Virus record (IMG/VR): IMGVR_UViG_3300012532_000215
Coordinates: 1 to 41,280 of that record
Reading direction: 5' to 3' (one strand)
Origin: a virus
DNA: 41,280 nucleotides
The notes under the pieces were generated by a model, which was not told the DNA's origin, did not search any database, and saw only the letters and a program-made list of their open reading frames with translations. How positions within the stretch are numbered: position 1 is the stretch's first letter; every line of letters starts with the position of its first letter. Positions 4,641 through 39,077 of this stretch are shown one piece after another. The translations under genes and the position numbers were made by a program.

Positions 4641-5254
4641 TATGGACGAACAAAACCTCGGCTGTCAATTACGCAACCCTCTGGCAGCGGGATGCGCCAC
4701 GCGAGAGGCTGAATGCTCGACAGCAGATCAACGGGCGCTTGGTATCGGTGCTCGAACGCTTTGTTGAAACCAAAGCGGCTGTACCGAATGAAGCGAACAC
4801 GAGCCACACGTTTCCACGGACCGCGGGGAATGTCTACAAATCCCGATCGAATCTGCGCGCTGCTGCCGAAGTAGTCCTGCGCTGCGGCGAGATCGGCGCG
4901 GTGCACATCCGACACTTCTCGGCGCCTACTAGTGCGCCAACGGACAACATAAATGTCACATTTATTAAGCAATCTGCCGCTAGCGTCGTTCACCAACACG
5001 TACGACGGGGGCAGCCGAATATCGCTCGGCATCGCCACCGGATCGAGCTTCCTCTCTCCTATGCGCCGCGCCTGCTCCGTCGAAACGAAGCTCACGTGGT
5101 CGCCGCGCACGAGCAGGTGACCGAGCTCGCACACATTGTTTTCGCACACCTCTACCTCGGCGATGCGCGGATCGGGCCCAGCGCTCTCGTCAATCTGCAA
5201 GACGCTTGCAGGATTGTCGCATTCACATTTTTCTTCTTCATTCATCGTGGACAT
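4640..5254 (-). CDS. Unknown protein (204 aa)
   Basis: Family not recognised. The ATG at 5254 gives the full length; a second in-frame ATG at 5245 makes an ATGA overlap with the previous stop and is equally likely. The N-terminal 45 residues are acidic and contain paired Cys (CECDNP, CENNVCEL). The rest is mixed alpha/beta with basic stretches (WRTSRRREVSDVHR). There is no signal peptide or membrane segment. It lies between a glycine-zipper membrane protein and the Arg-rich protein in what looks like a virion-protein operon. Confidence 0.6.
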   Translation of the reverse strand: MSTMNEEEKCECDNPASVLQIDESAGPDPRIAEVEVCENNVCELGHLLVRGDHVSFVSTEQARRIGERKLDPVAMPSDIRLPPSYVLVNDASGRLLNKCDIYVVRWRTSRRREVSDVHRADLAAAQDYFGSSAQIRSGFVDIPRGPWKRVARVRFIRYSRFGFNKAFEHRYQAPVDLLSSIQPLAWRIPLPEGCVIDSRGFVRP

Positions 5255-5664
5255 CCGATGACTGCTTCGACTCGATCAGAGAGCATGATCGTTCTGAAGC
5301 TGCCGCGCGTGAAGTGGCTTGGCGCCTTCTGCCGCAGCCGATACTTGTTCGCAGTGGTATCGATCTTGTGCGCGACGTAGCCGTTACGACGTGCCCATGC
5401 AATTGCCTCGGCGCGTGTGAACTTGTCGCGGTCGAAGAGCAGCGTTTGCACCTGCGTGCCGCGCGGACACGTGCGCCGGTTTTCGAGCAGCTCCCTCCGA
5501 CGTCGCGTGTCACCGCGTTCCGAGCCGAGCACGGCACCGATGCCTCCACCGACGAGTGCACCGGGAAAGCCGAGCAGCACTCCTCCGAGGAGCACACCGA
5601 GGCCTCCGCCGATCGCCATGTTCACTCCGCGCGTTGGGTTCTCTTCGTACTTTTGTTTGGGCAT
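5242..5664 (-). CDS. Glycine-zipper membrane protein (140 aa)
   Basis: The ATG at 5664 (MPKQKYEENP) has a strong ribosome site (GAGGAGATAGAG) and lies just downstream of the solitary CRISPR-like hairpin at 5693-5728. Residues 14-50 form a long Gly-rich hydrophobic hairpin (MAIGGGLGVLLGGVLLGF, then ALVGGGIGAVLG) typical of glycine-zipper membrane proteins. A basic segment with LLENR follows, then a soluble C-terminal domain of about 80 residues that contains DRDKFTRAEAIAWARRNGY. Probably a virion membrane protein given its neighbours; family unknown. Confidence 0.65.
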   Translation of the reverse strand: MPKQKYEENPTRGVNMAIGGGLGVLLGGVLLGFPGALVGGGIGAVLGSERGDTRRRRELLENRRTCPRGTQVQTLLFDRDKFTRAEAIAWARRNGYVAHKIDTTANKYRLRQKAPSHFTRGSFRTIMLSDRVEAVIGCPR

Positions 5665-5692
5665 CTCTATCTCCTCGCGATCACGTAACCAA

Positions 5693-5728
5693 GTCTCGAC
5701 TTCTGTGGGCGTCGAGCTGCCGTTGCTT
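5693..5728 (-). repeat. Solitary CRISPR-repeat-like hairpin
   Basis: This is a near copy of the array repeat in an intergenic gap, 2 bases after the stop of the 6122-5730 gene and about 12 bases before the ribosome site of the next gene. The stem is CTCGAC/GTCGAG, a compensatory variant of the array stem CTCGGC/GCCGAG, with a conserved 10-base loop. It has the same orientation as the array (RNA sense on minus). Confidence 0.85.
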
Positions 5729-5729
5729 T

Positions 5730-6122
5730 TCATCTTTTTGCGACAGCATAACCAAAAATGACACCGATGACCGCAGCGAGTACCGCCACGGGAATTATCG
5801 ATGAGCCGGCAACTTGCTCGTCGCACAGGGGTACTCTGTCCACAGTTTCGGCCATCTTCTCTCGGTTGCCAAAATATCCGCCTTCGATGGCGTTGCACTG
5901 CGCCTCGTCCAAGTACGGACCGTTGGCCGCTCCCGCGCAACTGTCGGCGCGACGCCCCCAGCACGAAGGAAGCGCTGCGATACCTGCACGCAGAAGCTCT
6001 GCGCGCTCTGCCGCCGAAAGCTTGGCGGCGAATTGATCGATCTGCGCCGCCGTCATCGCCCGAAATGTTTCGTGACTTGGAAGAGTGGGCGTCTGACCGA
6101 GCCCTATCCATTGGATGCTCAT
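5730..6122 (-). CDS. Small C-terminally anchored virion-like protein with W-I-G motif (130 aa)
   Basis: Starts with ATG at 6122 overlapping the previous stop. The N-terminus MSIQWIGLGQ carries the motif shared with four neighbouring proteins. The body is Ala-rich and helical (residues 20-50), with four Cys around residues 54-82 (SCWGRRADSC, EAQCNAIEGG). The C-terminus is one membrane helix (IIPVAVLAAVIGVIFGYAVA) ending in AKR. Such a tail-anchored protein fits a membrane-associated virion component. Family not recognised. Confidence 0.65.
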   Translation of the reverse strand: MSIQWIGLGQTPTLPSHETFRAMTAAQIDQFAAKLSAAERAELLRAGIAALPSCWGRRADSCAGAANGPYLDEAQCNAIEGGYFGNREKMAETVDRVPLCDEQVAGSSIIPVAVLAAVIGVIFGYAVAKR

Positions 6123-9025: not shown

Positions 9026-10606
9026 TTAAGTCTCGATTTCCGTAGGCATCGAGCTGCCTTTTTCCGGTTCAATTACTTCAACTTGTGGCGTGGACGGCTC
9101 TACAGAAGCAGGAGGAGTCTGAACGATTTCCTCGATCGGCACCTTCCTGAAGGCCTCCCACGGGTGCACGTACGGCGTCGGTTCCGCGGCTGGTGGTGGA
9201 GGCGGTGGCCGCTCCCATGTTCGCTGTGGAGTCGCTGCAGGAGCAGGCGGAGGCTCCCATGCCCGCTGCTGAGAAGGCGCTGCCTCCCAAGGATGCGCTG
9301 CGATGGGCCTGCGCTGCGGTTCGGGCGGCAGTGCTCTCTGTTGCTGTTGCTGCCTATGTCTCTCTGCAGCGGCCTCGGCGCGCTCCATGAGTTCGACCTG
9401 CTCGCGCATGCTCTTGGTTCGATTCGTCCCGACTTTGTCGAAGACCTCTCCGACCTTGTCGAGAAAGCCATCGAGCATGCCCTTGTACTTGTCGATGTTG
9501 TAGAGCGTCGGTGCGCTCACTTCGCCATCAACCGCCATGAGTCTCAGCGGTCCGATGTCCTTGAACTTCGCGGGGAAGTCCGGGTCACCAGGAGGAGGTG
9601 GCGGCTCAGCATCAGGAGTTCCCCCACCGACGTGCTGGGCGATGTCGTGTGTGAACGCGTGCACACCGCGAACGATCGAGCTCATCTCCGTCAGCTGCTC
9701 GAGCGGACTCTTCGGCGGCGGGGGCGGTGGTGGTGGCTCTGGAGGCGGTGGCGGCGCGTAGTACTGAGGAGGATAGGAAGCGGCTAACCTCATCTGATCG
9801 AGCTGGTAGCGGTATTCGACGTTCTGCCGCATGAGCTCTTGCAGCATCGTCGCGAGCGTCGGATCGATGCCTGCAGGTATCTGCATGGGCATGGCAGGAG
9901 GTTGCGGTTGTGGTGCAGGCATCGGTTGCGGCTGATGGTACTGCGGCGCAGGCTGTGGCTGATGGTAGTAACCAGGCGCGCCCTGGTAGCCATAGCCAGG
10001 CATCGGTCCTCCCTGGTAGCCGTAGCCATTTGGCGGCCATCCTCCCTGGGGCGGTTGACCTCGGCGCATGTCGTCCTCCTGATTTTTTTGGGCAGCAAAT
10101 TTGATCGTGCCGGTGCCCCAAGACGGCAGCTGGTCGTCGAAGATCGTCCACTTGTACTCGGCCTTGTCGCCCTTCCAATGATTGTCACGGACATAGGCGA
10201 CGAGCGCGCCGTAATCTCTCAGAGCCGACACGGGGTGCTCGGGGATTCCTTCATGCTCCTCAGGCTTGATCTGCTTGATGCGCACGTAGGCATTCGGGTG
10301 AAAGCGCGTAATCTGCATGTAGCGCGTCGCATAGTCCGCGTTCCAGTTCACTCGCGCGACTCCGCCAGTCTTGAGCGACATCACCCTGTTGTGCTCAGCG
10401 ACTAGCCGCGAGCTCTCAGCATCGAGAGGCATCTCCCTCGCTTCCTCCTCGGAAATTTCGGCTTCTGTGAGAGGGTTACCGAACGAGTCAACCGGCGTAC
10501 CCTCGACAAAGAGTCGAGCTGGGTCGACGGCCTTGCCCTCCGTGCCGACCCTGTAGGGCCTTCTCGGCTTGCGCTTCGGCTTCTTTGCTTCGCCGTTCTC
10601 GGACAT
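9026..10606 (-). CDS. Pro/Gln-rich scaffold-like protein (526 aa)
   Basis: Not recognised. Residues 1-30 are Lys/Arg-rich. Residues 70-165 form a compact globular domain (with YMQITRFHPNAYVRIKQIKP). Residues 170-230 are Gly/Tyr/Gln/Pro-rich low complexity (GYGYQGG, QPQP repeats). Helical segments flank proline runs, and the C-terminal 120 residues are Pro/Glu-rich with poly-Gln. The last residues are encoded by a solitary CRISPR-like repeat. The mix of disordered and coiled regions suggests a scaffold or linker in the virion operon, which is inference. It starts 7 bases after the preceding stop. Confidence 0.65.
   Translation of the reverse strand: MSENGEAKKPKRKPRRPYRVGTEGKAVDPARLFVEGTPVDSFGNPLTEAEISEEEAREMPLDAESSRLVAEHNRVMSLKTGGVARVNWNADYATRYMQITRFHPNAYVRIKQIKPEEHEGIPEHPVSALRDYGALVAYVRDNHWKGDKAEYKWTIFDDQLPSWGTGTIKFAAQKNQEDDMRRGQPPQGGWPPNGYGYQGGPMPGYGYQGAPGYYHQPQPAPQYHQPQPMPAPQPQPPAMPMQIPAGIDPTLATMLQELMRQNVEYRYQLDQMRLAASYPPQYYAPPPPPEPPPPPPPPKSPLEQLTEMSSIVRGVHAFTHDIAQHVGGGTPDAEPPPPPGDPDFPAKFKDIGPLRLMAVDGEVSAPTLYNIDKYKGMLDGFLDKVGEVFDKVGTNRTKSMREQVELMERAEAAAERHRQQQQQRALPPEPQRRPIAAHPWEAAPSQQRAWEPPPAPAATPQRTWERPPPPPPAAEPTPYVHPWEAFRKVPIEEIVQTPPASVEPSTPQVEVIEPEKGSSMPTEIET
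9030..9065 (-). repeat. Solitary CRISPR-repeat-like hairpin at a gene end
   Basis: Stem CTCGAT/ATCGAG with the conserved loop and the following GCTGCCTTT arm, in array orientation. It forms the last codons of the Pro-rich gene (SSMPTEIET then TAA) and is followed by AAGGAG in the minus RNA. The stem differs from the array repeat at both partner positions, so pairing is kept. Confidence 0.85.
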
Positions 10607-11678: not shown

Positions 11679-12155
11679 CTAGTGCCTCATGCGCTGAGTG
11701 ATTTTGAACTCTTCGTCGTCGGGGAGCGAGGCCATACGATCTGTGTCCCGGTCTCGGCTTCCATAGGCGCCGAGCTGCCTTTGAAGGGGTTTGAAGCGAA
11801 GAAAGACCCTCTTGCGACTGCGCAACGCTTCCTCCTCCTCGGGCGTCGACAAGGTCGACACAGCGAGCTTCTGCGTCCGCCGCGTCCTATCGACGAGCTT
11901 CTGGTAGAGTGTCATCCGCACCTTGGGCGTCTGTCGACGAGGGTCCCGCGTCACGTCGTCAAATTGGTCGACAAGTCGCACGAAGCGCGCGCGGTCCCAC
12001 CCCGAGGCGTACCAGACCCCGAGCAGCCAGGATGCGGTTGGTAGAGCAATAATAAGGACGATGATCCATTCATTCACAAAGAAATTGCTGACACATGTTT
12101 TTCGAGCCGGCTCGGAGCCGAAGTAGTAGCCGATCCTACATTCAACTTTCGTCAA
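11679..12155 (-). CDS. Single-span membrane protein whose C-terminus contains a repeat element (158 aa)
   Basis: The longest frame starts at a TTG (12155); a GTG further in, just before NEWIIVLIIALPTASWLL, may be the true start. One membrane helix (WIIVLIIALPTASWLLGVWY) is followed by a basic, helical cytoplasmic-type region. Residues about 123-135 are encoded by a solitary CRISPR-like repeat. Behind the repeat, an internal ATG opens MASLPDDEEFKITQRMRH, so a shorter product is possible. The layout resembles an inner-membrane spanin, but no lipoprotein partner is adjacent. Function unknown. Confidence 0.5.
   Translation of the reverse strand: MTKVECRIGYYFGSEPARKTCVSNFFVNEWIIVLIIALPTASWLLGVWYASGWDRARFVRLVDQFDDVTRDPRRQTPKVRMTLYQKLVDRTRRTQKLAVSTLSTPEEEEALRSRKRVFLRFKPLQRQLGAYGSRDRDTDRMASLPDDEEFKITQRMRH
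11751..11786 (-). repeat. Solitary CRISPR-repeat-like hairpin inside a gene
   Basis: Stem CTCGGC/GCCGAG exactly as in the array, loop variant TTCCATAGGC, followed by GCTGCCTTT. It lies in frame near the 3' end of the membrane-protein gene and is read as QRQLGAYGSRD. Array orientation. Confidence 0.85.
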
Positions 12156-12324
12156 TAATTTTCAAATTTTGAGGTTGAGGCGGTTTGCTACGACCGTCTT
12201 TCTGAGGTGATTCGCCTCGCTCTGCCTCCTCCTCGTCTCTCATGCGAGCGAGAACATCATCGACGTCAGGCTCCGAATACCCCATCGCTAAGAGACGCAT
12301 CCTACACTCGGCGTAGATGTCCAT
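12142..12324 (-). CDS. Small acidic protein whose homologue is matched by an array spacer (60 aa)
   Basis: ATG at 12324 (MDIYAECRMRLLAMGYSEPD). The protein is helical, acidic in the middle (DDVLARMRDEEEAERGE) and polar at the end. Family not recognised; the N-terminal part could be a small UBA-like helical unit, but this is weak. Its 5' half (12275-12311) matches a spacer of the array at 35 of 37 positions. One difference is synonymous and the other is Ala to Val. It overlaps the next gene by 14 bases. Confidence 0.65.
   Translation of the reverse strand: MDIYAECRMRLLAMGYSEPDVDDVLARMRDEEEAERGESPQKDGRSKPPQPQNLKIIDES
12275..12311 (+). other. Near-self protospacer (matches array spacer 33991-34027)
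   Basis: The crRNA-sense spacer equals the + strand here except at spacer positions 3 and 13. Bases immediately 5' on the + strand are CTCC, where a type V PAM would lie. The difference at position 3 falls in the expected seed. Confidence 0.85.
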
Positions 12325-12333
12325 GGTCGATCT

Positions 12334-12369
12334 GTCTCGGCTTCCCTAGGGATCGGGTTCTAAACTACC
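12334..12369 (-). repeat. Decayed solitary repeat-like element
   Basis: Starts like the array repeat (GTCTCGGCTTCC) and keeps TAGG and a partial TCGGG arm, but the stem has mismatches in either strand and the GCTGCC arm is lost. It lies between the 60-aa gene and the plus-strand gene. Kept as a probable remnant only. Confidence 0.35.
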
Positions 12370-12373
12370 GAGC

Positions 12374-12670
12374 ATGACGAGCGACGACGATCTTGTCCAA
12401 CACGCAGAACGCGCAGTGGTCGAAGCCGCGGTTGAGTGGGCGAGAGAGCAGAAGATGTCGGCGCCAGCGGTACAGACTCCCGCAGCGTCGAAGCTCCGCA
12501 CGGCCTGCTACATGTTGTACCGCGCGCGCACTATCACGGGCAGGGTACGGCAGGATGAGATCGAGCGTGCGATGGCAGAAAGCGTCTCGACTTCCATAGG
12601 CGTCGAGCAGCCTTTGCACCTTAACGAACCTTGCGCGACTATTTCTGAAAAAAGGCGCGCCAATCGGTAA
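12374..12670 (+). CDS. Lone plus-strand gene, small helical protein (98 aa)
   Basis: Starts at ATG 12374 (MTSDDDLVQHAERAVVEAAV). The protein is acidic and amphipathic with helices such as TPAASKLRTACYMLYRARTI and VRQDEIERAMAESV, which looks like a real coding product. No ribosome site is obvious. The last 30 residues run through a solitary repeat read in antisense and overlap the end of the convergent cupin-like gene by 32 bases. It is the only convincing + strand gene seen. Function unknown; a regulator is possible. Confidence 0.5.
   Translation: MTSDDDLVQHAERAVVEAAVEWAREQKMSAPAVQTPAASKLRTACYMLYRARTITGRVRQDEIERAMAESVSTSIGVEQPLHLNEPCATISEKRRANR
12584..12619 (-). repeat. Solitary CRISPR-repeat-like hairpin downstream of the cupin-like gene
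   Basis: Stem CTCGAC/GTCGAG, loop TTCCATAGGC, then a GCAGCCTTT arm. Array orientation; 20 bases downstream (in minus sense) of the cupin-like gene's stop and inside the 3' part of the plus-strand gene. Confidence 0.85.
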
Positions 12671-13148
12671 ACTCGCGCGTGTCACGATCGAGGAAACCCC
12701 AATTCTTGTTCTTCGGGCCATGCACGAACAGCGTCCAGCAGCCACCGAAGACATCGAGCAGTTCGACGCGATGAAACACGTCATTGGTGAGAACGTTGAT
12801 GTTGCCGGGACGGAACACGCGCTCGCGCACACTAGGCCAGCCTCTCTCTAGACGCTCCTCGCGGTAGCCTCCCGAGAGAATGAGCGACACGCTCCACTTC
12901 CACGGATGAGAATGTAGCTCGCGAGCTTCGTCGTCGCGATGAAAGTGGTGGAGGAACATCCCGTAGCCCGGAACCCACATGATGCCCTCGCGCGGCGTGC
13001 CGTTGATGTCAAACGGGTAGCTGTCGTCCGGCATCTTCGGCTTCTTCACCAGGTAGTAGCGGCTCAAGTACTTCGACTTGCCGTGGCGGTCCATGATGAT
13101 GCGCCTGAGGAACCTGCTTGCGATTTCTTGCAAAAACATCACCATCAC
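12639..13148 (-). CDS. Cupin-like phage protein (169 aa)
   Basis: Starts at GTG 13148 overlapping the thyX stop (GTGA). The central motif FLHHFHRDDEARELHSHPWKW, then SVSLILSGGYREERL and a later H in VFHRVEL, follows the double-stranded beta-helix pattern with metal-binding His/Glu. Such cupin-like proteins of unknown substrate occur in phages and bacteria. The C-terminus (FVHGPKNKNWGFLD) is also typical of the group as I know it. Reaction unknown. Its coupling to thyX suggests a nucleotide or base-modification setting, but that is inference. Confidence 0.65.
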   Translation of the reverse strand: MMVMFLQEIASRFLRRIIMDRHGKSKYLSRYYLVKKPKMPDDSYPFDINGTPREGIMWVPGYGMFLHHFHRDDEARELHSHPWKWSVSLILSGGYREERLERGWPSVRERVFRPGNINVLTNDVFHRVELLDVFGGCWTLFVHGPKNKNWGFLDRDTREFTDWRAFFQK

Positions 13149-17973: not shown

Positions 17974-18009
17974 CGATGAAGGCAGCTCGATGCCTAAAGA
18001 AATCGAGAC
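17974..18009 (+). repeat. Solitary CRISPR-repeat-like hairpin, inverted orientation
   Basis: The only copy with the crRNA sense on the + strand. Perfect stem CTCGAT/ATCGAG, loop GCCTAAAGAA, preceded by AAGGCAG. It lies in the 48-base gap between two minus-strand genes. A minus transcript through it would be complementary to the array repeat RNA and could act as an anti-repeat. Confidence 0.75.
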
Positions 18010-18596: not shown

Positions 18597-19067
18597 TTAC
18601 ATCCTTCCGAGCTTCCATAAACCGATGCCAACGGCGTCGATCATATTATTGTCAAAATCTTTTGCGCGCGGCCTCTTGGGCAGCAACGCAAGCTCTTCCT
18701 TTCTTAGAGCCGCGAGCACGCGCTTGTTATGAATATCCTTTGGTACGGTGCCCTTCCATGTGCGCGGCCATGTCAGCTGCACATCTGCATTCTGAGCTTC
18801 AAGCCGGCCCTTGATCTCGCCTACAAGACAAGACAAATCGAGCAAGTCATTTGTGTCAATCCGATGCTCGCGCGGGTACCACCGAGGGGCTTCTATGATC
18901 ACACTCCACGTTATACCGCACCAGGGTAGCTCTTTAACACTTCGTACGACACTAGTCTCCACAAGCTTTGACTTCTGAAACAGAGCCCAACCAAGGTTTG
19001 CTCTATCGGCACGCAAACCTGGATCTATAGCGAGAAGATGAGGTGCCGTCCTGATTTCTGTAGGCAT
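18597..19067 (-). CDS. RuvC-like Holliday junction resolvase (156 aa)
   Basis: RNase H-fold resolvase motifs are visible: LLAIDPGLRADRANLGWALF (first acidic residue), VIIEAPRWYP (Glu) and DNNMIDAVGIGLWKLGR (last Asp pair). Expected role: resolving branched DNA during replication or packaging. The ATG at 19067 overlaps the polymerase stop as TGATG and lies inside the solitary repeat hairpin at 19048-19083, whose AAAGGCAG may serve as ribosome site. The open frame extends upstream in the polymerase gene but this start fits the fold. Confidence 0.8.
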   Translation of the reverse strand: MPTEIRTAPHLLAIDPGLRADRANLGWALFQKSKLVETSVVRSVKELPWCGITWSVIIEAPRWYPREHRIDTNDLLDLSCLVGEIKGRLEAQNADVQLTWPRTWKGTVPKDIHNKRVLAALRKEELALLPKRPRAKDFDNNMIDAVGIGLWKLGRM

Positions 19068-19083
19068 CAGGCTGCCTTTGCTT
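19048..19083 (-). repeat. Solitary CRISPR-repeat-like hairpin over the pol/ruvC junction
   Basis: Stem CCTGAT/ATCAGG, changed at several paired positions relative to the array yet fully paired; conserved loop TTCTGTAGGC. The 5' stem arm in the minus RNA contains the polymerase stop and the resolvase start (TGATG). Array orientation. Confidence 0.88.
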
Positions 19084-21064
19084 TCGAAAAATCCCACGGC
19101 ACGAGCCGGCCATCGACCCACACCGGCTTCGCGCTCTTGCTCCACTTACGGCAAAGAAATGGCTCGGCCACCGGCGGCACGTCAGGCAGGAAAGGTTCAG
19201 CACCGACGACCATGAGCCGCGCGAGCTCAACGGCCGCGTCGTGAGCACGCTCGTCGTCCGAAACTTCGACCACAAATTCATCATGTACGAAATTTACTGG
19301 CCTACAGCCGAAGAGCGGTGAGTCCGTCTCGACGTAGCAGGCCTTCGCAACGAGGAAACCAGCAGCCTTCGCGGCATCAGCGGCGAGCGACTGAAACATA
19401 CCGTTCGCCGCTTCAGTAAAGCTCACATCACCGCGGTAGCGATTCGAGTAGAGCTGCTTGATGAGAGGGAACGGAGCGTCGACCTGCGAGTTTACCCAGT
19501 CAAAATACGGCTGGCTTTCTGGCCATGCCTCTTCCCAATAGCCCCTGATCTCGAACGCCTTGTCCTCAGTCACGTCGACGCTGTAGTTCTTGCGCGCGTA
19601 ATGGCGCCAGCTCTTAGCCCCTAGCCCACCAGGGAAGCCGAAGTTCCCCGCCTTGCCGGCCTGACGCGGCTTATAGACGTGGCCGTGAGGGTCGCGCCTG
19701 TAGTCGGCGAACGCCTCGTCGTAAGGGATGTCGAGAATCCTCCGGGCGATCTCAACATGGCAATCGAGACCAGCCCTTAGCATCTCCGCCATCCTCGACT
19801 GACCGAGAACAGCCAAACAAACCTGCGACCATGTCCGGAGTTCGAATTGCGAATAGTCCGACACAGCGTAGATGTGACCGGGGCGTGGGCGGAAACACTC
19901 ACGGACTCCCTCCTCGGTCGGAAGATTCTGCACATTGGGCGTCGACGACGTCCGACCTGTGGAAAGCAACGACTCGTAGCGCACCTTCAGAGGCGTAAGA
20001 ACTGCATCGTTCAGCAGCGGCACATCAGTGGACAACGTCTTCCTCAACGATGATAGCTCCGAGTATTTCTCGAGGACCTCATCGCCTGAATGTTCACAGA
20101 CATCGGCATCCGTCTTCGGCTGAGGTTTGCCTTTCTTGCCCCCGGACGTCATCTCGATGAACATCTTAGCCTGCACGCCGTTGACGATGATGTTATTGCG
20201 CACGCTCTGAACTCGGCCAAAGCTGTTGCGCTGGACATCGAGTGCGAACACGGCGGTGCTGTTATGGTCTGCACCGAGCTCATCGAAGGCCTTTTGCACA
20301 TACGCCGCGACAACGCGCCGCTGCGTGGCCTTGGTGTCGCGCGTCCCATCTTTACGCATGAGCCCAGCGACGACGAGATCTTCGGCAATGCTATCAAACT
20401 TCTGTTGCGTCTTTCTCGCGAACTCCTTCACTCCTGCAGGGTCGGCGATCATTCCCCAGCAGCTCATGAGCTGCAGCCACCACGCCGCACGCGTCTGTCG
20501 GAACTCGTCGTCGAGAAACTGCGTGTCCTCCTCCTGCCTCTGCCAGACGGCGAGCGTCACGACAGCGTCCGCGATCGCGTACTCGCGGGCTTCGGCTGGC
20601 CACCAGTCGACAGGCACGTCCATGAGCTCGCCGAAGCGCAGCTGCCAGCCGCCCTTCTCGAGCTCGATGCCGAGGTGACGCCGGGCTAGGTCAGCGAGAG
20701 AATAGTTGAGCTTCTCGGGCTTGCCATCCACGTTCATGAAGCCGCGGTAGACGCCCATGGCGATGTGGTTCAACTTCTCCCTCACCTCCGTGTCGCTCAC
20801 ACGGTCGGCGGCGTAGACCTCGAAGATGAGCGGCAGGAGGTCTGGCCACTTTGCAGCGAACACGGAGAAATCGAATGCGACATTGTCGCCGACGAGTAAC
20901 GAGTCACCCTCGAGCAGGGCCTCAACGACCTCGCGAGCCTCCGTGTGATGGAAGAGTTCGTAGCTGTCGGTCGCGTCGGCGACGCTCATGCAGACGAGCG
21001 GCGGAGCGAGCCTACCGGCCGCGATGAGTTCCGTCTCGCAGTCGAGGGCGATGCCGGTTCTCAT
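19067..21064 (-). CDS. Family A DNA polymerase with 3'-5' exonuclease domain (665 aa)
   Basis: Replicative or repair polymerase of the virus. Exonuclease motifs: ALDCETEL (Exo I) near the N-terminus, GDNVAFDF (Exo II) and YAIADAVVT (Exo III). Polymerase motifs: VSDYSQFELRTW (motif A, about residue 400), KAGNFGFPGGLG (motif B) and FVHDEFVVE (motif C, about residue 593). No 5' nuclease domain, as in many phage PolA enzymes. ATG 21064 has GGAGAAG upstream and overlaps the stop of the 31-aa ORF. All catalytic residues look intact. Confidence 0.93.
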   Translation of the reverse strand: MRTGIALDCETELIAAGRLAPPLVCMSVADATDSYELFHHTEAREVVEALLEGDSLLVGDNVAFDFSVFAAKWPDLLPLIFEVYAADRVSDTEVREKLNHIAMGVYRGFMNVDGKPEKLNYSLADLARRHLGIELEKGGWQLRFGELMDVPVDWWPAEAREYAIADAVVTLAVWQRQEEDTQFLDDEFRQTRAAWWLQLMSCWGMIADPAGVKEFARKTQQKFDSIAEDLVVAGLMRKDGTRDTKATQRRVVAAYVQKAFDELGADHNSTAVFALDVQRNSFGRVQSVRNNIIVNGVQAKMFIEMTSGGKKGKPQPKTDADVCEHSGDEVLEKYSELSSLRKTLSTDVPLLNDAVLTPLKVRYESLLSTGRTSSTPNVQNLPTEEGVRECFRPRPGHIYAVSDYSQFELRTWSQVCLAVLGQSRMAEMLRAGLDCHVEIARRILDIPYDEAFADYRRDPHGHVYKPRQAGKAGNFGFPGGLGAKSWRHYARKNYSVDVTEDKAFEIRGYWEEAWPESQPYFDWVNSQVDAPFPLIKQLYSNRYRGDVSFTEAANGMFQSLAADAAKAAGFLVAKACYVETDSPLFGCRPVNFVHDEFVVEVSDDERAHDAAVELARLMVVGAEPFLPDVPPVAEPFLCRKWSKSAKPVWVDGRLVPWDFSKAKAA

Positions 21065-21156
21065 TTTCTTCTCCAGAGCCAGCACACGAGCTCAATGGCG
21101 AGCACGCAAAGGGCCGAGGCGGAAGCGCCGTAGACGAAGCTCGGCCAGTACATCAT
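21061..21156 (-). CDS. Tiny membrane protein with W-P-S-F motif (31 aa)
   Basis: Reads MMYWPSFVYGASASALCVLA and continues with one hydrophobic helix to WLWRRK. The start overlaps the zinc-ribbon stop (ATGATG) and its stop overlaps the polymerase start (AAATGA). It resembles the 30-aa ORF at 21320-21412, so the pair probably arose by duplication. Function unknown. Confidence 0.55.
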   Translation of the reverse strand: MMYWPSFVYGASASALCVLAIELVCWLWRRK

Positions 21157-26535: not shown

Positions 26536-27270
26536 TCACGCCCTCGCCTCCTCTATTGCCTTGTCCCTCGACACGACCTCGAAGGAGAGCTTCTCCGCAT
26601 CCTCGACCGCCATGTAACGGCTCCACACCGTGCCATCCCAGTGAAAGCCCGCGGACTTCACCAAGTCCTTGTCCTTGTACGCCGTCCTCGCGATGAACTC
26701 AGCCTTCGGTCGCGACGCGCGCTGCAGCGCCAGGTGCAGTCGATCGTCGGCCTCGTCACCGAGCCTCTCGAGTAGACGAGCTAGCAAGAGGCAGTCGTTG
26801 ATGGCGCGGTGCGCGCTCGTAACCGCAACGCCGTGGGCGAGCGCTATAGCGACGAGCGAATGGTAGGCAGACGTGACAGGCCACACCATGTCTTCAAGAG
26901 TGCAGACCCATGTCGGCCTAAGAAGATCCGCCGCCCCTTCGTACGGCATGGAACTCTCGAACGAGCTCGCCGCGCGCCACACAAAAGCACGATCGAAATC
27001 AGCCTGGTGTGCGAGCACGATGTCGGCCTGCTGCGCGGCGTGTCCAGCAATCGTCCACGCAATCTCGGGGTCTGTGCCGAATGCCCGCACGCCGGGCGGG
27101 ATGGCGTTAAATATCTCGGCGGCGTTGCCTTCACCGAGCAGCACCGCTGAGTAGCACTCCACCATGCTGCGGTGCTCCACGCTCCAGAGCACGTAGCCGA
27201 GCTCGATCACCTCGTCGTGCTCGCGGTCCAATCCCGAGGTCTCGAGATCCAGAATGAGCACGTTCTTCAT
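26536..27270 (-). CDS. DEDD-family 3'-5' exonuclease (244 aa)
   Basis: DnaQ-like exonuclease: ILDLETSGLDREHDEVIELG (D-x-E, motif I), DIVLAHQADFDRAFV (motif II) and SAHRAINDCLLLARL (motif III, HxAxxD type), so the DEDDh set is complete. It could proofread or trim nucleic acid. The C-terminal 70 residues (KAEFIARTAYKDKDLVKSAG and HWDGTVWSRY) form an extra small domain seen attached to some phage exonucleases. ATG 27270 has AAGGATG upstream. Confidence 0.88.
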   Translation of the reverse strand: MKNVLILDLETSGLDREHDEVIELGYVLWSVEHRSMVECYSAVLLGEGNAAEIFNAIPPGVRAFGTDPEIAWTIAGHAAQQADIVLAHQADFDRAFVWRAASSFESSMPYEGAADLLRPTWVCTLEDMVWPVTSAYHSLVAIALAHGVAVTSAHRAINDCLLLARLLERLGDEADDRLHLALQRASRPKAEFIARTAYKDKDLVKSAGFHWDGTVWSRYMAVEDAEKLSFEVVSRDKAIEEARA

Positions 27271-27461
27271 CGAGTCATCCTTCGAAGCTTCGCGTCTCTC
27301 GCGATGATGAAATCCGCCACGTTCCACTCGCCTTTCTTCACGCGCTCCAGGGCCGACGCCATCGCCTCTGCGCTGCAGTAGCCAGAGCGCACGAGCGCGT
27401 CGCCGATCTTGATGGCATGCCGCATCGCTTCCGGCGTTACGCGCCCGTGCGTTTTTCTCAT
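27267..27461 (-). CDS. Small helical basic protein (64 aa)
   Basis: ATG 27461 overlaps the preceding stop (ATGA); its stop overlaps the exonuclease start. The sequence contains TPEAMRHAIKIGDALVRSGY and AEAMASALERVKKGEWNVAD, two helices that resemble a small DNA- or protein-binding bundle. No family recognised. Confidence 0.55.
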   Translation of the reverse strand: MRKTHGRVTPEAMRHAIKIGDALVRSGYCSAEAMASALERVKKGEWNVADFIIARDAKLRRMTR

Positions 27462-27859: not shown

Positions 27860-27873
27860 CGTTTTCTCTCCCT

Positions 27874-27909
27874 GTCCCGACTTCCGTAGGTATCGAGCTG
27901 CCTTTACGA
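27874..27909 (-). repeat. Solitary CRISPR-repeat-like hairpin upstream of a TTG-started gene
   Basis: In the minus RNA the stem is CTCGAT/GTCGGG, held by two G.U pairs; on the + strand these would be mismatches. The 14 bases after it (AGGGAGAGAAAACG) are identical to the start of an array spacer next to the repeat at 33357. It overlaps the last codons of the nuclease gene. Confidence 0.88.
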
Positions 27910-29202
27910 ACCAAATCTCGACAGATATTCCCTGAGCATCGCATCGGCGAACGTAGCCGATGTCTGCGCAACGCCCTCCTGCATCTCGGCGTCCATCAAG
28001 TCGCCCGGCTCGAGCGTCGCGATGACCGCGCGCTCCGCGCTCGCGGCGAACGTGACCCAGTGGTCCTCGGGCGTCGCTGGCTTCGGCTGCGCCGTCGAGC
28101 CCACGGGCCTACCGCGCTTTCCCTTAGGAGCCTCAGCCTCCGGCTCGGCCACCTGAGTGGGCTCTGCATCCGCGATGACCTCAGCAACCGTCTCCACGGG
28201 CGGCGCGGCGGCTGCGGCCGCCTTCCTCGCCGCTGCACGCTCAGCGAGCTTGTTCCGCGACGGGGCTGTCGGCGCCGGAGCGGGTGCTGCTTGCATGACC
28301 TGCTGTGCTGCCTGCGCTACCGGCGGTGAGTTCACAGCACCGACCGCGGCGCCGTTGGCACCCTTGCGCGCCCTCAGCTTGAGCAAATAGTCTTCCTTGG
28401 CCGTACCTTGACTCATGATGGACCTCAGTCTGTCTTGGGGTGAAAGGTTACACTTACTTTGAAACGGACAGCCCCCGAAGGCCTCGCAGCCCCCGGCATC
28501 GTAAGGCACGTCTATCGCGGTCGTGCCCTCGTCGATGAGAAGCTTCATCTCGTGCGCGCTCTTCACGCTCTGAGTGACGCGGTCCTCTATCATCTCTGGC
28601 GTGAGCTCGGCGCGGACGGCCATCGCGTTCGGTGCGCCGCTCCTGAGACCATAGGTCCACTGAGCGGCAACCTTCGGCGCGCCCGTCTTCACGAGGGCCC
28701 AGGCCGCATAGAGCGTCACCTGCACGTCTTCCTGCATTACGTCGGGCTGGAGCGCCCAGTCGAAGGAGCCCGTGGTCTTGTGGTCGTAGACTGTTGGTAG
28801 TTCCGAACCGCTCGTCGTGTGGCTCGGCCAAGCAACCCCGCACTTGAAGGGCATCCACAAGTCGAGCTGCATGATGAACCGCACACCGCCAATGGTGATG
28901 CCGGCACCCATCTCGACGCACTCGGGGTCGACGAGGTGCGGAGGGGGCAGGTGCGGGAGCATCATCTGCGCCACGCGCGCCTCCTGTTTTCCCGATGGCG
29001 GCACGCGCTTCTTCAGCCAGAGCTCGAGGTATCGGTGCACCCGAATACCGAACTCGGCGAACTTGTTCGGCGCCCTCTCTGCGCCGTCGAGCCACTCCCA
29101 CGCCCACTTTCGGGGGCAGAGCTCGTAGGTGGAGACCTGACTCGGTGAGCATTCGTTGATCGCCTGAGCGCTCGCTAAGTTCTGGCTTATACCCTGTAGC
29201 AT
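27904..29202 (-). CDS. PD-(D/E)XK nuclease of RecB/Cas4-like family (432 aa)
   Basis: Typical N-terminus CSPSQVSTYELCPRKWAWEW, then GIRVHRYLELWLKK (His motif), a central VYDHKTTGSFDWA (D...K catalytic strand) and DVQVTLYAAWAL (Q-x3-Y motif). The late Cys cluster (CEAFGGCPFQSKCN) with the first Cys suggests a 4Fe-4S cluster as in AddB/Cas4. The C-terminal 110 residues are Ala/Pro-rich and probably disordered. ATG 29202 (MLQGISQNLASA) was chosen over an upstream frame extension to 29397. Likely recombination or end-processing; no Cas1/Cas2 is nearby. Confidence 0.8.
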   Translation of the reverse strand: MLQGISQNLASAQAINECSPSQVSTYELCPRKWAWEWLDGAERAPNKFAEFGIRVHRYLELWLKKRVPPSGKQEARVAQMMLPHLPPPHLVDPECVEMGAGITIGGVRFIMQLDLWMPFKCGVAWPSHTTSGSELPTVYDHKTTGSFDWALQPDVMQEDVQVTLYAAWALVKTGAPKVAAQWTYGLRSGAPNAMAVRAELTPEMIEDRVTQSVKSAHEMKLLIDEGTTAIDVPYDAGGCEAFGGCPFQSKCNLSPQDRLRSIMSQGTAKEDYLLKLRARKGANGAAVGAVNSPPVAQAAQQVMQAAPAPAPTAPSRNKLAERAAARKAAAAAAPPVETVAEVIADAEPTQVAEPEAEAPKGKRGRPVGSTAQPKPATPEDHWVTFAASAERAVIATLEPGDLMDAEMQEGVAQTSATFADAMLREYLSRFGS

Positions 29203-29219
29203 ATGATCCGTCAACTTTT

Positions 29220-29525
29220 TTATTCCGCGGCCTGCGCCGTTGCGCTCGCGCACGAGGTCGGTTGGTACCTCCAGTAGCGCAGGTGCGACAGCAATCCCTG
29301 CTCGTGACCGAAGTGCCGACCGCAGAGGACGCAGGCGCACACCCAGGGCAGCGAATCGCTGAAGAGGCTGCGGCGAAAGTTGGAAGCATACTGCCATCTG
29401 TCTTGCTCTAGCTTGAGGCCTCTTCGGTCGCGATCGCGCAGGACATGGCGAAAGACGCGGCGCTCTTGCGTGTGGCTCGGGATGCGCGCGGCCTCGGCGA
29501 AGATTTCGAGGATAGCTCGGTACAT
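29220..29525 (-). CDS. Small C2H2-type zinc-finger protein (101 aa)
   Basis: ATG 29525 follows the previous stop by one base. A zinc-finger-like element CACVLCGRHFGHEQGLLSHL is visible around residues 63-82. The N-terminus is helical and Arg-rich. No ribosome site is obvious, so translation may be coupled. Function unknown; a DNA-binding accessory protein is possible. Confidence 0.5.
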   Translation of the reverse strand: MYRAILEIFAEAARIPSHTQERRVFRHVLRDRDRRGLKLEQDRWQYASNFRRSLFSDSLPWVCACVLCGRHFGHEQGLLSHLRYWRYQPTSCASATAQAAE

Positions 29526-33221: not shown

Positions 33222-35190
33222 GTTGCCGATTTTTGTAGGCATCGGACAGCCTTTGTATGTGCATGTGCGGACACATGGCGAAGTCTCGGTTTCTGTAGGC
33301 GCCGAGCTGCCTTTGGGCTACTGCTGCATGGGACGCAGCCTGCGTTTTCTCTCCCTGTCTCGGCTTCTGTAGGCGCCGAGCTGCCTTTGGGCCATCGAGC
33401 GCTTGGAACTCGACGGGGTAGCTATTCCGGTCTCTGCTTCTGTAGGCGCCGAGCTTCCTTTGGGTCGTGAGAGGCGCACCGCGGTCCAGCAGATGGGTGA
33501 GGGTCTCGGCTTCTGTAGGCGCCGAGCTGCCTTTGGGCCGGCTACTTACCCTGCAATTTTGGGCACTGTCAACGGCGCGTCGAACACACTGTCGACGCCT
33601 AGTCTCGGTTTCTGTAGGCGCCGAGCTGCCTTTGGGCCTGCACAATGAGACCGGCGAGATCATCTCCTTCGATGTCTCGGCTTCTGTAGGCGCCGAGCTG
33701 CCTTTGGGCTTGCTCACATCGCGCCACTCGCAGCCCAGCTCCATGTCTCGGCTTCTGTAGGCGCCGAGCTGCCTTTGGGCGACGCCGCGCGTGCAAGTTC
33801 ACTAAACCCTTGTCTCGACTTCTGTAGGCGCCGAGCTGCCTTTGGGCCTTGTCAGGTGGGGAGCGCAATCGCCTGCACCTCGCGTCTCGACTTCTGTAGG
33901 CGCCGAGCTGCCTTTGGGCGCGCGGCTGTTGGTGGTCCTTGCACAGTCGATCGTGTCTCGACTTCTGTAGGCGCCGAGCTGCCTTTGGGCCCGAGTGTAG
34001 GATGCGTCTCTTAGTGATGGGGTACTCGTCTCGGCTTCTGTAGGCGCCGAGCTGCCTTTGGGCCCTCCTCGAAGCAGCCCGCGAGCATGGCTTCGACGTC
34101 TCGGCTTCTGTAGGCGCCGAGCTGCCTTTGGGCGATCCGCAGCAGCTCTGCCCCGCGTTCGGTCTTGGGCTTCTTGTAGGCGCCGAGCTGCCTTTGGGCA
34201 ATCAAGACCCGCCCGGACAGCCCTAGATCGCGCGCATGTCTCGGTTTCTGTAGGCGCCGAGCTGCCTTTGGGCCTGTCAGGGGCGCGGCCGTACATCTCC
34301 GTCTCGGCTTCTGTAGGCGCCGAGCTGCCTTTGGGCGCCTGCACCGGAGCGCGGCTTCCTCTACGCGCTGTCTCGGCTTCTGTAGGCGCCGAGCTGCCTT
34401 TGGGCTCTTTTTAGACACATTACACCCTGTAGCCATGTTAACCCGTCTCGGCTTCTGTAGGCGCCGAGCTGCCTTTGGGCCGCGGGTGTGACGCGCGCCG
34501 AGCTGCACGCCCCGCGGAGCGTCTCGGCTTCTGTAGGCGCCGAGCTGCCTTTGGGCGCGCCATCGCGCGATTGAGGAGCTACTCCGCGCCACGTCTCGGC
34601 TTCTGTAGGCGCCGAGCTGCCTTTGGGCGCTGAAGAGAATGGTGTGGGGCGGCCCGACTCCCATGTCTCGGCTTCTGTAGGCGCCGAGCTGCCTTTGGCC
34701 TAAGCTTGATGATGCCGTCGTCTCGGCCTCTGTAGGCGCCGAGCTGCCTTTGGGCGTCGGGTTTGGCCTTGCCACGCTTGTCCAGTGCCTGGTGTCTCGG
34801 CTTCTGTAGGCGCCGAGCTGCCTTTGGGCACGCAAGCGGCCGGCTCGTGGCTGTGCATTCGCTGTGTCTCGGCTTCTGTAGGCGCCGAGCTGCCTTTGGG
34901 CCCTGACGCTTCGCGGTCTCGTCGGGATCCGGGACTGGGTCTCGGCTTCTGTAGGCGCCGAGCTGCCTTTGGGCACCGAAGTGCAGCTTCTTCGACACGC
35001 TCGAGCACTGGTCTCGGCTTCTGTAGGCGCCGAGCTGCCTTTGGGTGCGCGCACGGCGACGCCGAGGAGCAAGCGCTCGCCCGTCTCGGCTTCTGTAGGC
35101 GCCGAGCTGCCTTTGGGGCCGACAAGGCCAACGACGATGGCGGCGCCGAACCTCGTCTCGGCTTCTGTAGGCGCCGAGCTGCCTTTGGGT
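33222..35190 (-). CRISPR. CRISPR array, 27 repeats of 36 bp plus one decayed terminal repeat
   Basis: Intact repeats start at 33283, 33357, 33430, 33503, 33602, 33674, 33745, 33812, 33884, 33955, 34028, 34098, 34162 (variant), 34238, 34301, 34370, 34445, 34521, 34593, 34665, 34720, 34794, 34866, 34939, 35011, 35083 and 35155; a diverged one lies at 33222-33257. Spacers are mostly 33-40 bp, with outliers of 63 (33539), 19 (34701), 27 (34274) and 28 (34134). In minus (crRNA) sense each repeat ends in a hairpin CTCGGC/GCCGAG followed by AC, the type V layout with the hairpin next to the spacer. The effector-proximal end is the more uniform one, and decay is at the far end, so the leader is at the effector side. 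G.U-only variants (33812, 33884, 33955) support minus-strand transcription. No cas1 or cas2 is in the window. Confidence 0.97.
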
Positions 35191-35245: not shown

Positions 35246-36685
35246 TCACTCAGCCGCCGTGTCGATGAGCTGATTTGCCGCGTTATTTGCATCCTGATCT
35301 CTCTGAGCATCACACTGCTCGCAGTAGAGCACTACATCGCGCACTCGGTCGCCGGTAAGCTCACATCCGCATACACTGCACACCATTGTGCGTCGTTTGA
35401 TCGTGGCGAGTGTAGCGCGCTCGCCGAATACGCTCTGGACCTCGGCTCGCAGAGACCCCGGTGCCACGAGGAATCGGACGTGGCGCGCCTCGGGAATCTC
35501 GGTCGGTTGGTCTCTCGAGATGAGCGTCGGCAGGTCGTAGTCCTCCATGACAACGGAGCCGTATTTGGCCGCGAGCGAGCGCACCCACAAGCGGTAGATC
35601 TCTCGGCGCTGGCGAAGGACCTTGGCGTACTCGTCGCGCTCCCACTGATAGAGATGCCGATCGCGCCTGGCCCAGTGCTCCGCAGAGATCGGCTCGCCTT
35701 CGATAGGCACGCGACCGAGCTCTCGGTGCGTCGCGCTGGGGTCCCTCAAGGCTTCGCGTCTCGCACGCGTGCGCCCGCGGGCATCGCCGAGGTAGGCCAC
35801 CGCTGCATCGTCGGCGAGTCCTCGGAGCGACTCGGAGTGCCGGAGTTTGTCAATGAGACGTCTCGGCAGGATGAGCTCGTCCGTCGAGCCCTCGTCGGTC
35901 GCCACGTAGGCGATGCGCACTCCGCGGTCTCCCAGCGACCTCCAGCCGAAGTTGATGGCCGCTCGGCCGCTGCCGTACTGGCGCTCCGGGCGCTCGTGGC
36001 GCATCGTGACGTGCACCGAGTAGACATAGCGGTCGCCGACCCGCTCGACGCAGATGAGGGCTCGGACGACCTGGACGCCTGGCGGCAGTGGGCGGTGGGC
36101 GATGACGGGCAGCGTGACGTGGATGCCGAGACCGAGGTAGAGCCGCGCCGTGACGCGGCCCTCAGGTGCCGATAGGCGCAGCGAGCCCCTGCCGGAGAGT
36201 ACATCGTCGGTCGTCGCACCCGAGCAGGCCTGGATATTTGCCCCGAGGCGACCTGTCCCGTCAAATCGACGGAATCGTGCGCGGAATTTGGTCGGATCGA
36301 GGCCTATTTCGCGCACCTGGGCGTCCTGATTTCCATCGGCATCAGGCGGCCTCTGTATTTTGATTTGCCTTACTTGGGCGAACCATCGCGCGCGCCCTGA
36401 GACCTTGCGCGGCGCGCGGTAGGGCGACTTTGCGGCGCGGCGTACATCGGCCTCGATGGCCTGATAGGTGCCCCAGCCGAGGCCACATCGCGATCGCAGC
36501 CAGCAACTCATCTCGGCATGGACGAGCTTGGCCGCCGAGCGCTCGACGCCGCTCTGCTCGGCGATGATGCGCCAGTTCAGGAGCTCGACCAGGGCATTGC
36601 GGTAGCGGCATGCGAGGCGGAGCTGCGTGAGGAGGAGATCGAACCCCTCGGTTGGTTTGAGAGCGCCATAGCGGTAGACGATCAT
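35246..36685 (-). CDS. Miniature type V (Cas12/TnpB-like) effector, probably nuclease-dead (479 aa)
   Basis: C-terminal RuvC and zinc-ribbon architecture: RuvC-I region AAINFGWRS with Asn245 where the catalytic Asp is expected, RuvC-II VVMEDYDL (Glu381), zinc ribbon C436-x2-C439 ... C455-x2-C458, and RuvC-III DQDANNAANQ (Asp465). The N-terminal 240 residues (starting MIVYRYGALKPTEGFDLLLT) would form the recognition and wedge parts. Size is close to TnpB and the smallest Cas12 proteins. ATG 36685 overlaps the previous stop (ATGA) and has AAGGAAAC upstream. The array begins 55 bases after the stop on the same strand. Predicted: crRNA-guided DNA binding and silencing without cutting. Residues 110-121 are encoded by a repeat-like hairpin. 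Confidence 0.88.
   Translation of the reverse strand: MIVYRYGALKPTEGFDLLLTQLRLACRYRNALVELLNWRIIAEQSGVERSAAKLVHAEMSCWLRSRCGLGWGTYQAIEADVRRAAKSPYRAPRKVSGRARWFAQVRQIKIQRPPDADGNQDAQVREIGLDPTKFRARFRRFDGTGRLGANIQACSGATTDDVLSGRGSLRLSAPEGRVTARLYLGLGIHVTLPVIAHRPLPPGVQVVRALICVERVGDRYVYSVHVTMRHERPERQYGSGRAAINFGWRSLGDRGVRIAYVATDEGSTDELILPRRLIDKLRHSESLRGLADDAAVAYLGDARGRTRARREALRDPSATHRELGRVPIEGEPISAEHWARRDRHLYQWERDEYAKVLRQRREIYRLWVRSLAAKYGSVVMEDYDLPTLISRDQPTEIPEARHVRFLVAPGSLRAEVQSVFGERATLATIKRRTMVCSVCGCELTGDRVRDVVLYCEQCDAQRDQDANNAANQLIDTAAE
36323..36358 (-). repeat. CRISPR-repeat-like hairpin inside the effector gene
   Basis: Perfect stem CCTGAT/ATCAGG, loop TTCCATCGGC, followed by GGCCTCTG. The stem is identical to the solo copy at 19048-19083. 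In frame it encodes QRPPDADGNQD. Array orientation, so the effector mRNA carries a potential Cas-binding hairpin. Confidence 0.8.
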
Positions 36686-38785: not shown

Positions 38786-38797
38786 AGTTTCGACCTG

Positions 38798-38833
38798 TCC
38801 CGATTTCTGTAGGCATCGAGTAGCCTTTTCATG
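38798..38833 (-). repeat. Solitary CRISPR-repeat-like hairpin between two genes
   Basis: In the minus RNA the stem is CTCGAT/ATCGGG with one G.U pair (a mismatch on the other strand); loop TTCTGTAGGC identical to the array. It overlaps the stop of the 82-aa gene and sits directly before the start region of the next gene. Confidence 0.88.
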
Positions 38834-39077
38834 CTTGTCCCACTATTCGCGCACTCGTGTGAGCTTCTCGAAATACTTTGATATCGAAGCTGTGTTGAGC
38901 CTCGCGGACCGCGACCTCAAAATCGGTCGCGCTCTCGCCGACGCCGATGTGCTGAGCGTTCGCGCTCCGAATCAGGACGATGAAGCTGCCGAGCTCGACG
39001 AATGCGAGCATGAGGGCATCGTTGTCGTCAAGCCATTTTTTGAGCTGCTTTGCTTCAATGGGGGTCATCGTGTTCAT
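38829..39077 (-). CDS. Unknown protein (82 aa)
   Basis: Starts MNTMTPIEAKQLKKWLDDND (or MTPIE at 39068). A short helix is followed by ALMLAFVELGSFIVLIRSAN and a beta/helix C-terminus. No family recognised. The start overlaps the HTH-like gene's end; the stop lies in a solitary repeat. Confidence 0.55.
   Translation of the reverse strand: MNTMTPIEAKQLKKWLDDNDALMLAFVELGSFIVLIRSANAQHIGVGESATDFEVAVREAQHSFDIKVFREAHTSARIVGQA

What the first reader, a model, noticed from the sequence alone, without database searches (positions are those of the whole stretch)
19048..19083. Repeat hairpin that contains a stop/start junction and its own Shine-Dalgarno
In the minus RNA the element reads AAAGG, then TGATG within the 5' stem arm: the polymerase ends and the RuvC gene starts inside the hairpin. 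Other copies (9030, 17974, 38798, 33222) also place ATG 8-9 bases after AAGG. The element could gate translation, opened or closed by the effector.
Basis: partly seen in the sequence, partly recalled or inferred. Interest (0 to 1): 0.7.

Follow-up and report, generated by a model that had tools for sequence, protein, structure and literature searches.

The report
Phage CRISPR repeat copies between genes
A phage that carries its own CRISPR system, with an effector of a DNA-binding rather than DNA-cutting kind, also has nine stray copies of that system's RNA repeat, mostly where one gene ends and the next begins; one holds the stop of one gene and the start of the next, which suggests that the CRISPR protein may also control the phage's own messages.

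Summary
The 36-mer at 19048-19083 (minus) contains AAAGG, the pol A stop and the start of a RuvC-like resolvase (TGATG). It is a solitary copy of the repeat of a phage-borne type V-M (Cas12m) array at 33283-35190; the effector (35246-36685) has Asn for the first RuvC Asp. Nine copies lie outside the array. A model built only from relatives' repeats finds 9 of 9 (E 1e-11 to 2.5e-5; next non-array hit 0.15). All nine keep the six-pair stem (four pairs changed on both sides) and the final AC, as in the solved Cas12m2 crRNA scaffold. They cluster at stop codons (5 to 7 of 9 within 21 nt, by gene set). Fourteen records with related pol show no Cas12m and no convincing copy. The translation-gate idea is partly supported: at 19048 SD, stop and start lie in the scaffold, but only there does the ATG open a gene; one copy is antisense, two lie well inside reading frames. 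Best reading (0.4): docking or processing sites for the phage's own Cas12m on its mRNAs. Rivals: relics, delocalised guides, decoys. New variant of a known kind. No function was tested.

The parts
19048..19083 (-). solitary V-M repeat at the pol A / resolvase junction (the finding)
   Evidence: relatives-only model E 8.6e-7
19075..19079 (-). SD-like AAAGG, partly in the 5' strand of the possible pseudoknot (19077-19074 with 19065-19062)
   Evidence: sequence; pair counts
19067..19069 (-). stop codon TGA of DNA polymerase A, in the 5' stem arm
18597..19067 (-). RuvC-like Holliday junction resolvase, start ATG 19067-19065 inside the element
   Evidence: 156 codons; three relatives' homologues hit phrog_1770 (E 2.7e-7, 2.4e-6, 1.2e-4), the window protein only weakly (phrog_159 0.027, phrog_1770 0.093)
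19067..21085 (-). DNA polymerase family A
   Evidence: PF00476 4.9e-21, phrog_17 1.4e-52
33283..35190 (-). CRISPR array, 27 repeats of 36 nt; 23 of 27 spacers are 30-40 nt
33223..33258 (-). degenerate terminal repeat of the array, 5 of 6 stem pairs; found by R1, not by the relatives-only model R3
35246..36685 (-). Cas12m effector, 479 aa counted from the start shared with relatives (ORF open to 36838); RuvC-I Asp replaced by Asn245
5693..5728 (-). solo repeat just inside the start of a gene that overlaps the previous stop (ATGA); an alternative ORF 5242-6111 runs through it
9030..9065 (-). solo repeat encoding the last codons of 9026-10606, ending at its stop
11751..11786 (-). solo repeat inside ORF 11679-12155, 70 nt before its stop
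12584..12619 (-). solo repeat 21 nt after the stop of 12639-13148 (also inside the overlapping ORF 12365-12832, of unproven status)
17974..18009 (+). solo repeat, antisense, in the gap between the exonuclease stop and the next start; absent at this junction in relative L041
27874..27909 (-). solo repeat at the stop of the PD-(D/E)XK gene 27904-29397; followed by 14 nt identical to the start of array spacer 26
36323..36358 (-). solo repeat inside cas12m, overlapping a 23-aa insertion absent from the two aligned relatives
38797..38832 (-). solo repeat at the stop of 38829-39077, upstream of GTG start 38785

Best explanation
The element is an ectopic crRNA scaffold of the phage's own type V-M system, one of nine outside the array, mostly at gene junctions. 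Shown: homology to the array repeat, conserved scaffold pairing, the effector gene, the junction bias, and that SD, stop and start of the pol A / resolvase pair lie inside the scaffold. Inferred: Cas12m binds the folded scaffold in the mRNA as it binds pre-crRNA. At 19048 this would hide the SD and ATG and block reinitiation on the resolvase gene, while ribosomes finishing pol A would open the hairpin when no effector is bound; at the other junctions binding, perhaps with cutting just upstream of the scaffold as in pre-crRNA maturation, would separate neighbouring genes. The copy inside cas12m would give negative feedback.
For: Nine copies found by an independent model. Stem paired in 54 of 54 cells of the nine; four of six pairs change on both sides; covariation 0.322 against 0.185 shuffled, reached by 0 of 500 (related sequences can exceed such shuffles). 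All six pairs intact in 9 of 9 solos although up to 8 of 12 stem letters differ from the array consensus, against 22 of 27 array repeats. Final AC 9 of 9, the G before the stem 8 of 9, corresponding by position to base-specific contacts in Cas12m2 (PMC10442227, passages). Within 21 nt of a stop: 7 of 9 in a hand-curated gene set (2e-6), 6 of 9 in an uncurated minus-strand set (4e-5), 5 of 9 in a both-strand set (1.2e-3). 8 of 9 in sense with the minus-strand genes. The first four repeat letters are not kept in the solos. In relative G002 three copies lie directly before the cas12m start; in G001 a truncated copy starts at a TAA and in G017 one holds a TAG (those ORFs were not otherwise checked).
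Against: No binding, processing or expression data. The ATG opens a gene in 1 of 9. One copy is antisense; 11751 and 36323 lie well inside reading frames. Purifying selection against insertion inside genes would also give a junction bias. Folding z-scores are ordinary (-0.35 for this copy; -1.88 to +1.29 for the nine and one array repeat). The pseudoknot has only one pair with a change on both sides, and its A-U pair fails in 7 of 20 sequences. Apart from arrays, the cluster of seven in G001 and the three before cas12m in G002, those two records (246 kb) show one weak distant copy (E 0.001, in which 150 of 164 and 150 of 187 first-look candidates were scored). The curated gene set and the 21-nt cut-off were chosen after seeing the copies.
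Confidence: 0.4

Rival explanations
1. Dispersed relics: repeat copies were scattered by recombination and tolerated where they do least harm, between genes. The structure is inherited from several paired ancestral repeats and there is no function.
For: No copy at the 17974 junction in L041 nor at the pol/resolvase junction in L041, L042 and L043 (in L041 an extra gene of about 300 bp lies between); a 23-aa insertion inside cas12m, about one repeat plus spacer in length; one copy antisense; two copies share the same stem variant (19048, 36323).
Against: No stem pair is broken in nine copies that carry 37 stem differences in all; random substitution would leave all pairs in 0.3-6% of copies with 2-8 stem changes, though shared ancestry makes these not independent.
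Confidence: 0.27
2. Delocalised guides: each solo plus the next 20 nt acts as a crRNA that sends Cas12m to other DNA, as in CreR/CreTA or CAST homing; own DNA is spared because the repeat replaces the PAM.
For: Scaffold complete up to position -1. The 14 nt after solo 27874 equal the start of array spacer 26, directly after a repeat in both places, unlikely by chance.
Against: None of 10 downstream sequences (nine solos and 33223) has a TTN-anchored match of 8 nt or more elsewhere in the window; but the PAM of this effector is not known and the host is unknown.
Confidence: 0.15
3. Decoys like RNA anti-CRISPRs (Racr): the copies soak up a host's or rival's Cas12m.
For: Solitary repeats in viral genomes are known to do this for other types (PMC10651486, passages).
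Against: They would also inhibit the phage's own system, encoded in the same genome; most lie in or between genes on the coding strand. Promoters of separate small RNAs were not looked for.
Confidence: 0.12
4. Ordinary translational coupling (TGATG) with a chance hairpin.
For: Relatives L042 and L043 couple the same genes by GTGA without the repeat; z-score -0.35.
Against: Relatives-only repeat model hits this site at E 8.6e-7; eight further copies.
Confidence: 0.03

Closest known systems
Type V-M CRISPR-Cas (Cas12m)
   Same: Effector homologous to solved Cas12m chains (23vw_A, E 4.3e-47 with the three-sequence profile); N-E-D type RuvC as listed for clades 3 and 4 (PMC10442227, passages); 36-nt repeat with the same two-helix layout
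   Different: Carried by a phage whose pol relatives (14 records) show no Cas12m; repeat copies spread through the genome
Solitary repeat units / Racr RNA anti-CRISPRs
   Same: Single CRISPR repeat copies in a viral genome
   Different: Here the cognate effector and array are in the same genome; nine copies, mostly at gene junctions, two well inside reading frames
Ectopic repeats of CreTA / CreR / scaRNA
   Same: Repeats outside the array, diverged in sequence but kept for effector use (PMC9458426, passages)
   Different: No guide with a PAM-anchored match elsewhere in the window; most copies sit in or between genes on the coding strand
Translational operators bound by a protein (such as ribosomal protein leaders; recalled, not looked up)
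   Same: At 19048 SD and start lie in a structured RNA that a protein could bind
   Different: Binding not shown; the protein would be a CRISPR effector

Membership tests
Type V-M CRISPR-Cas | Cas12m-family effector | tested here: met
   phmmer 1.3e-29 and profile 4.3e-47 to a Cas12m chain; PADLOC's Cas12f and Cas12u1 models 2.4e-53 and 1e-50 (that library has no hit named Cas12m); Pfam only 0.24
Type V-M CRISPR-Cas | non-canonical RuvC triad, no DNA cleavage | tested here: inconclusive
   Asn in RuvC-I in 3 of 3 aligned effectors; activity not testable
Type V-M CRISPR-Cas | 36-nt repeat forming the two-helix crRNA scaffold | tested here: met
   pair counts, (second helix weakly supported); layout from PMC10442227 passages
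Type V-M CRISPR-Cas | 5'-TTN PAM | tested here: inconclusive
   no convincing spacer target: (20 of 114 plasmid records listed); exact 23- and 20-nt patterns of spacers 17 and 26 in IMG/VR; the others not scanned there
Racr / solitary repeat unit | single repeat in a viral genome outside an array | tested here: met
Racr / solitary repeat unit | not associated with cas genes | tested here: not met
   cognate cas12m and array in the same genome
Racr / solitary repeat unit | inhibits a host CRISPR system | not testable with these tools
   needs experiment; host unknown
CreR / CreTA ectopic repeat | diverged repeat outside the array that keeps effector recognition positions | tested here: met
CreR / CreTA ectopic repeat | guide partly matching a promoter next to a PAM | tested here: not met
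   0 of 10 downstream sequences with a TTN-anchored match of 8 nt or more in the window; host genome not available
Protein-bound translational operator | SD and start inside the bound structure | tested here: met
   for 19048 only
Protein-bound translational operator | protein binding represses translation | not testable with these tools
   no binding or expression data

The most novel reading that the evidence does not exclude
The phage has turned its Cas12m, of a kind that binds DNA without cutting, into a genome-wide post-transcriptional regulator: crRNA-scaffold operators at gene junctions let one effector set the translation or processing of many phage genes, including its own, with array crRNAs competing for the same protein so that guide supply tunes phage gene expression.
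Probability: 0.25. Interest if true: 0.88.

Novelty: new variant of a known kind. Interest (0 to 1): 0.62.

Why it matters
Ectopic CRISPR repeats are known as decoys or as sources of guide RNAs that act on DNA. Scaffold copies inside viral operons, with the cognate DNA-binding effector in the same genome, would be a third use: cis-acting mRNA elements read by a CRISPR effector. It is directly testable with one protein and a 36-nt RNA.

Tried and rejected
AlphaFold on the three-sequence effector alignment gave pLDDT 39.9 and was neither used nor fold-searched (two searches were waits). No Pfam family for the resolvase; PHROGs label it through relatives. No Rfam family in the window at gathering scores. 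Effector relatives: 2 in IMG/VR from the single protein, a third from the alignment; none confirmed among 15 pattern matches in genome contigs. The repeat pattern with fixed stem letters found nothing in IMG/VR, a looser one only G002 and nothing in genome contigs. Primase relatives: none by its patterns in IMG/VR, although pol loci L042, L044, L045 and L052 do encode one (first four hits listed of 5 loci). Near-match search of window 15000-36838 against phages: none. Cas1 sought and not found in 0 of 4 records (window, G001, G002, G017; control rings in 9 of 14). Spacers against 16 held relative loci: none within about 22% mismatches. CreR-like self-targets sought and not found. Chance as sole explanation rejected. 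A five-letter flanking repeat (ATCAT) at 17974 was noticed by eye; no such repeat was seen by eye at 19048, 27874 and 38797, the rest were not looked at, so a transposon reading was not pursued. A simple identity scan (20 of 35 or more) also lists about 20 weak places outside the array that I do not count; plain shuffles give 0-5 on the plus strand alone.

Full report
What is there. On the minus strand the 36-mer 19083-19048 holds an SD-like AAAGG, the stop of a family A DNA polymerase (PF00476, 4.9e-21) and, overlapping it by one base, the ATG of a 156-codon RuvC-like resolvase. Three homologues in relatives hit the PHROG for Holliday junction resolvases (E 2.7e-7, 2.4e-6 and 1.2e-4), the window protein itself only weakly (0.027 and 0.093).

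What it belongs to. The same sequence, as GCCCAAAGGCAGCTCGGCGCCTACAGAAGCCGAGAC, is the repeat of a 27-repeat CRISPR array on the minus strand (33283-35190) with a degenerate terminal copy at 33223. The gene on the 5' side of the array (35246-36685; its start is set by comparison with two relatives) encodes a Cas12m: phmmer 1.3e-29 and a three-sequence profile 4.3e-47 to a solved Cas12m chain. The first RuvC Asp is Asn in all three aligned effectors, matching the NED type listed for Cas12m clades 3 and 4 (PMC10442227, passages). Cas12m2 of that paper binds DNA and silences without cutting; whether this effector cuts is not known. No Cas1 was found in the window or in three records with related effectors (0 of 4).

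Nine copies outside the array. A covariance model that includes window copies finds them at E 8e-12 to 1.4e-9; the terminal repeat has 5e-9, two damaged array repeats 1.6e-7 and 6e-5, and the next hit 0.6. A model built only from 14 repeats of two relatives finds 9 of 9 solos at E 1.2e-11 to 2.5e-5, next non-array hit 0.15; it does not find the terminal repeat 33223. A hairpin-aware scan gives all nine at 20.25 or more while 30 Markov-simulated windows reach at most 18.0; 33223 scores 18.0.

Structure. In the nine solos the stem is paired in 54 of 54 cells, four of six pairs change on both sides, and the covariation score is 0.322 against 0.185 for shuffles, reached by 0 of 500 (related sequences can exceed such shuffles without structure). 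The number of further pair types is no higher than in shuffles (403 of 500 reach it), and 24 of 500 reach the number of doubly changed pairs. Nine of nine keep all six pairs although up to 8 of 12 stem letters differ from the array consensus; 22 of 27 array repeats do. A second helix between columns 7-10 and 19-22, a pseudoknot with the first, is paired in 91.7% of cells in the solos and shows one double change, in relative L009; its A-U pair fails in 7 of 20 sequences. The layout is that of the solved Cas12m2 scaffold: there too the 3' arm is -8 to -3 (in what that paper calls the pseudoknot; its 5' arm lies two letters nearer), and C(-1) and a G.A pair with A(-2) are read base-specifically (PMC10442227, passages). 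Letters A and C at these last positions are kept in 9 of 9, the G next to the stem in 8 of 9. The first four repeat letters are not kept. Free-energy folding alone is unremarkable: z -0.35 for this copy, -1.88 to +1.29 over the nine and one array repeat.

Where the copies lie. A stop codon lies within 21 nt for 7 of 9 in a gene set that I curated after seeing the copies (tail 2e-6), 6 of 9 in an uncurated minus-strand set (4e-5), and 5 of 9 in a both-strand set that includes doubtful plus-strand ORFs and counts stops of either strand (1.2e-3). Exceptions: 36323 inside cas12m, overlapping a 23-aa insertion lacking in two relatives, and 11751 inside a reading frame. 9030 and 5693 are in frame with the end of one gene and the start of another, and 12584 also lies in an overlapping ORF of unproven status. 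Eight copies are sense, 17974 is antisense. GATGCC occurs in 5 of 9 plus 33223; only at 19048 does its ATG open a gene.

Origin. A search with the polymerase gave 24 pattern matches in IMG/VR, of which 14 encode a relative. None of those 14 records shows Cas12m (which has no positive control of its own) and the best repeat hit in them has E 0.012 (7 of 14 have some hit at E 0.5 or less); several are fragments. L041, whose polymerase is 81% identical, lacks the copies at both junctions it covers (its pol and resolvase are separated by an extra gene of about 300 bp); L042 and L043 couple pol and resolvase by GTGA with no repeat. The pol end GCAGC.TGA is shared with L041 and L043, so part of the 5' arm may be old coding sequence. 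The copies therefore probably came with, or after, Cas12m in this lineage. Records with related effectors have few distant copies: G002 three directly before cas12m; G001 a second cluster of seven and one truncated copy at a TAA (E 0.001); G017 a pair at 104471 and 104522 (the latter holding a TAG) and one at 4151. In those scans 150 first-look candidates a record were scored, of up to 187.

How it most likely works. See Best explanation: an effector docking or processing site in mRNA, which at 19048 also covers SD and start. Anatomy is shown; binding, cutting and effect on translation are inferred. Against it: one antisense copy, two copies well inside reading frames, the ATG used once, ordinary folding energy, few copies in relatives, and a junction bias that purifying selection alone could give.

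Known and new. Single repeats in viruses are known as Racr (PMC10651486, passages) and ectopic repeats as CreTA/CreR parts (PMC9458426 and PMC13131331, passages); V-M is described on plasmids and some prophages (PMC11656645, passages); virus-encoded type V effectors including Cas12m relatives are mentioned in PMC12607003 (passages). Eight literature searches (open-licence PMC, listings capped at 10-20 papers, passages seen of six papers, none read whole) showed me no paper on repeat copies in viral operons beside their own effector; that is a limited search.

Noticed in passing
27860-27873 and 33343-33356 (minus): The 14 nt after solo 27874 (AGGGAGAGAAAACG) are identical to the start of array spacer 26, directly after a repeat in both cases; an exact 20-nt pattern of the spacer found nothing in IMG/VR.
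   Followed up: partly
12275-12311 (+) and 33991-34027 (-): Array spacer 17 matches the window itself at 35 of 37, inside small ORF 12142-12324; its first 12 nt also match at 37559 (+). Both sites are preceded by CTCC.
   Followed up: partly
about 12334-12350 (minus): A half repeat (CCTAGGGAAGCCGAGAC) lies just upstream of the start of the ORF hit by spacer 17; not counted among the nine.
   Followed up: no
L063 1300-1692: At one end of record G001 (110300-110692) is a second cluster of seven strongly diversified repeats; one has a CATGG/CCATG stem.
   Followed up: partly
L066 4409-6800: Record G017 carries an irregular, degenerate array with many repeats at spacings of about 42-152 nt beside a Cas12m 30% identical in the best segment.
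   Followed up: partly
26536-27327 (minus): DEDDh-type exonuclease (PADLOC DEDDh 5.1e-17; PF00929 1.2e-5), a family that PADLOC lists as CRISPR-associated.
   Followed up: no
32480-33200: Stretch with no clear gene (one 68-aa mechanical ORF), AT-rich toward the array end, with several GGGACA/TGTCCC words, between primase/helicase and array (seen).
   Followed up: no
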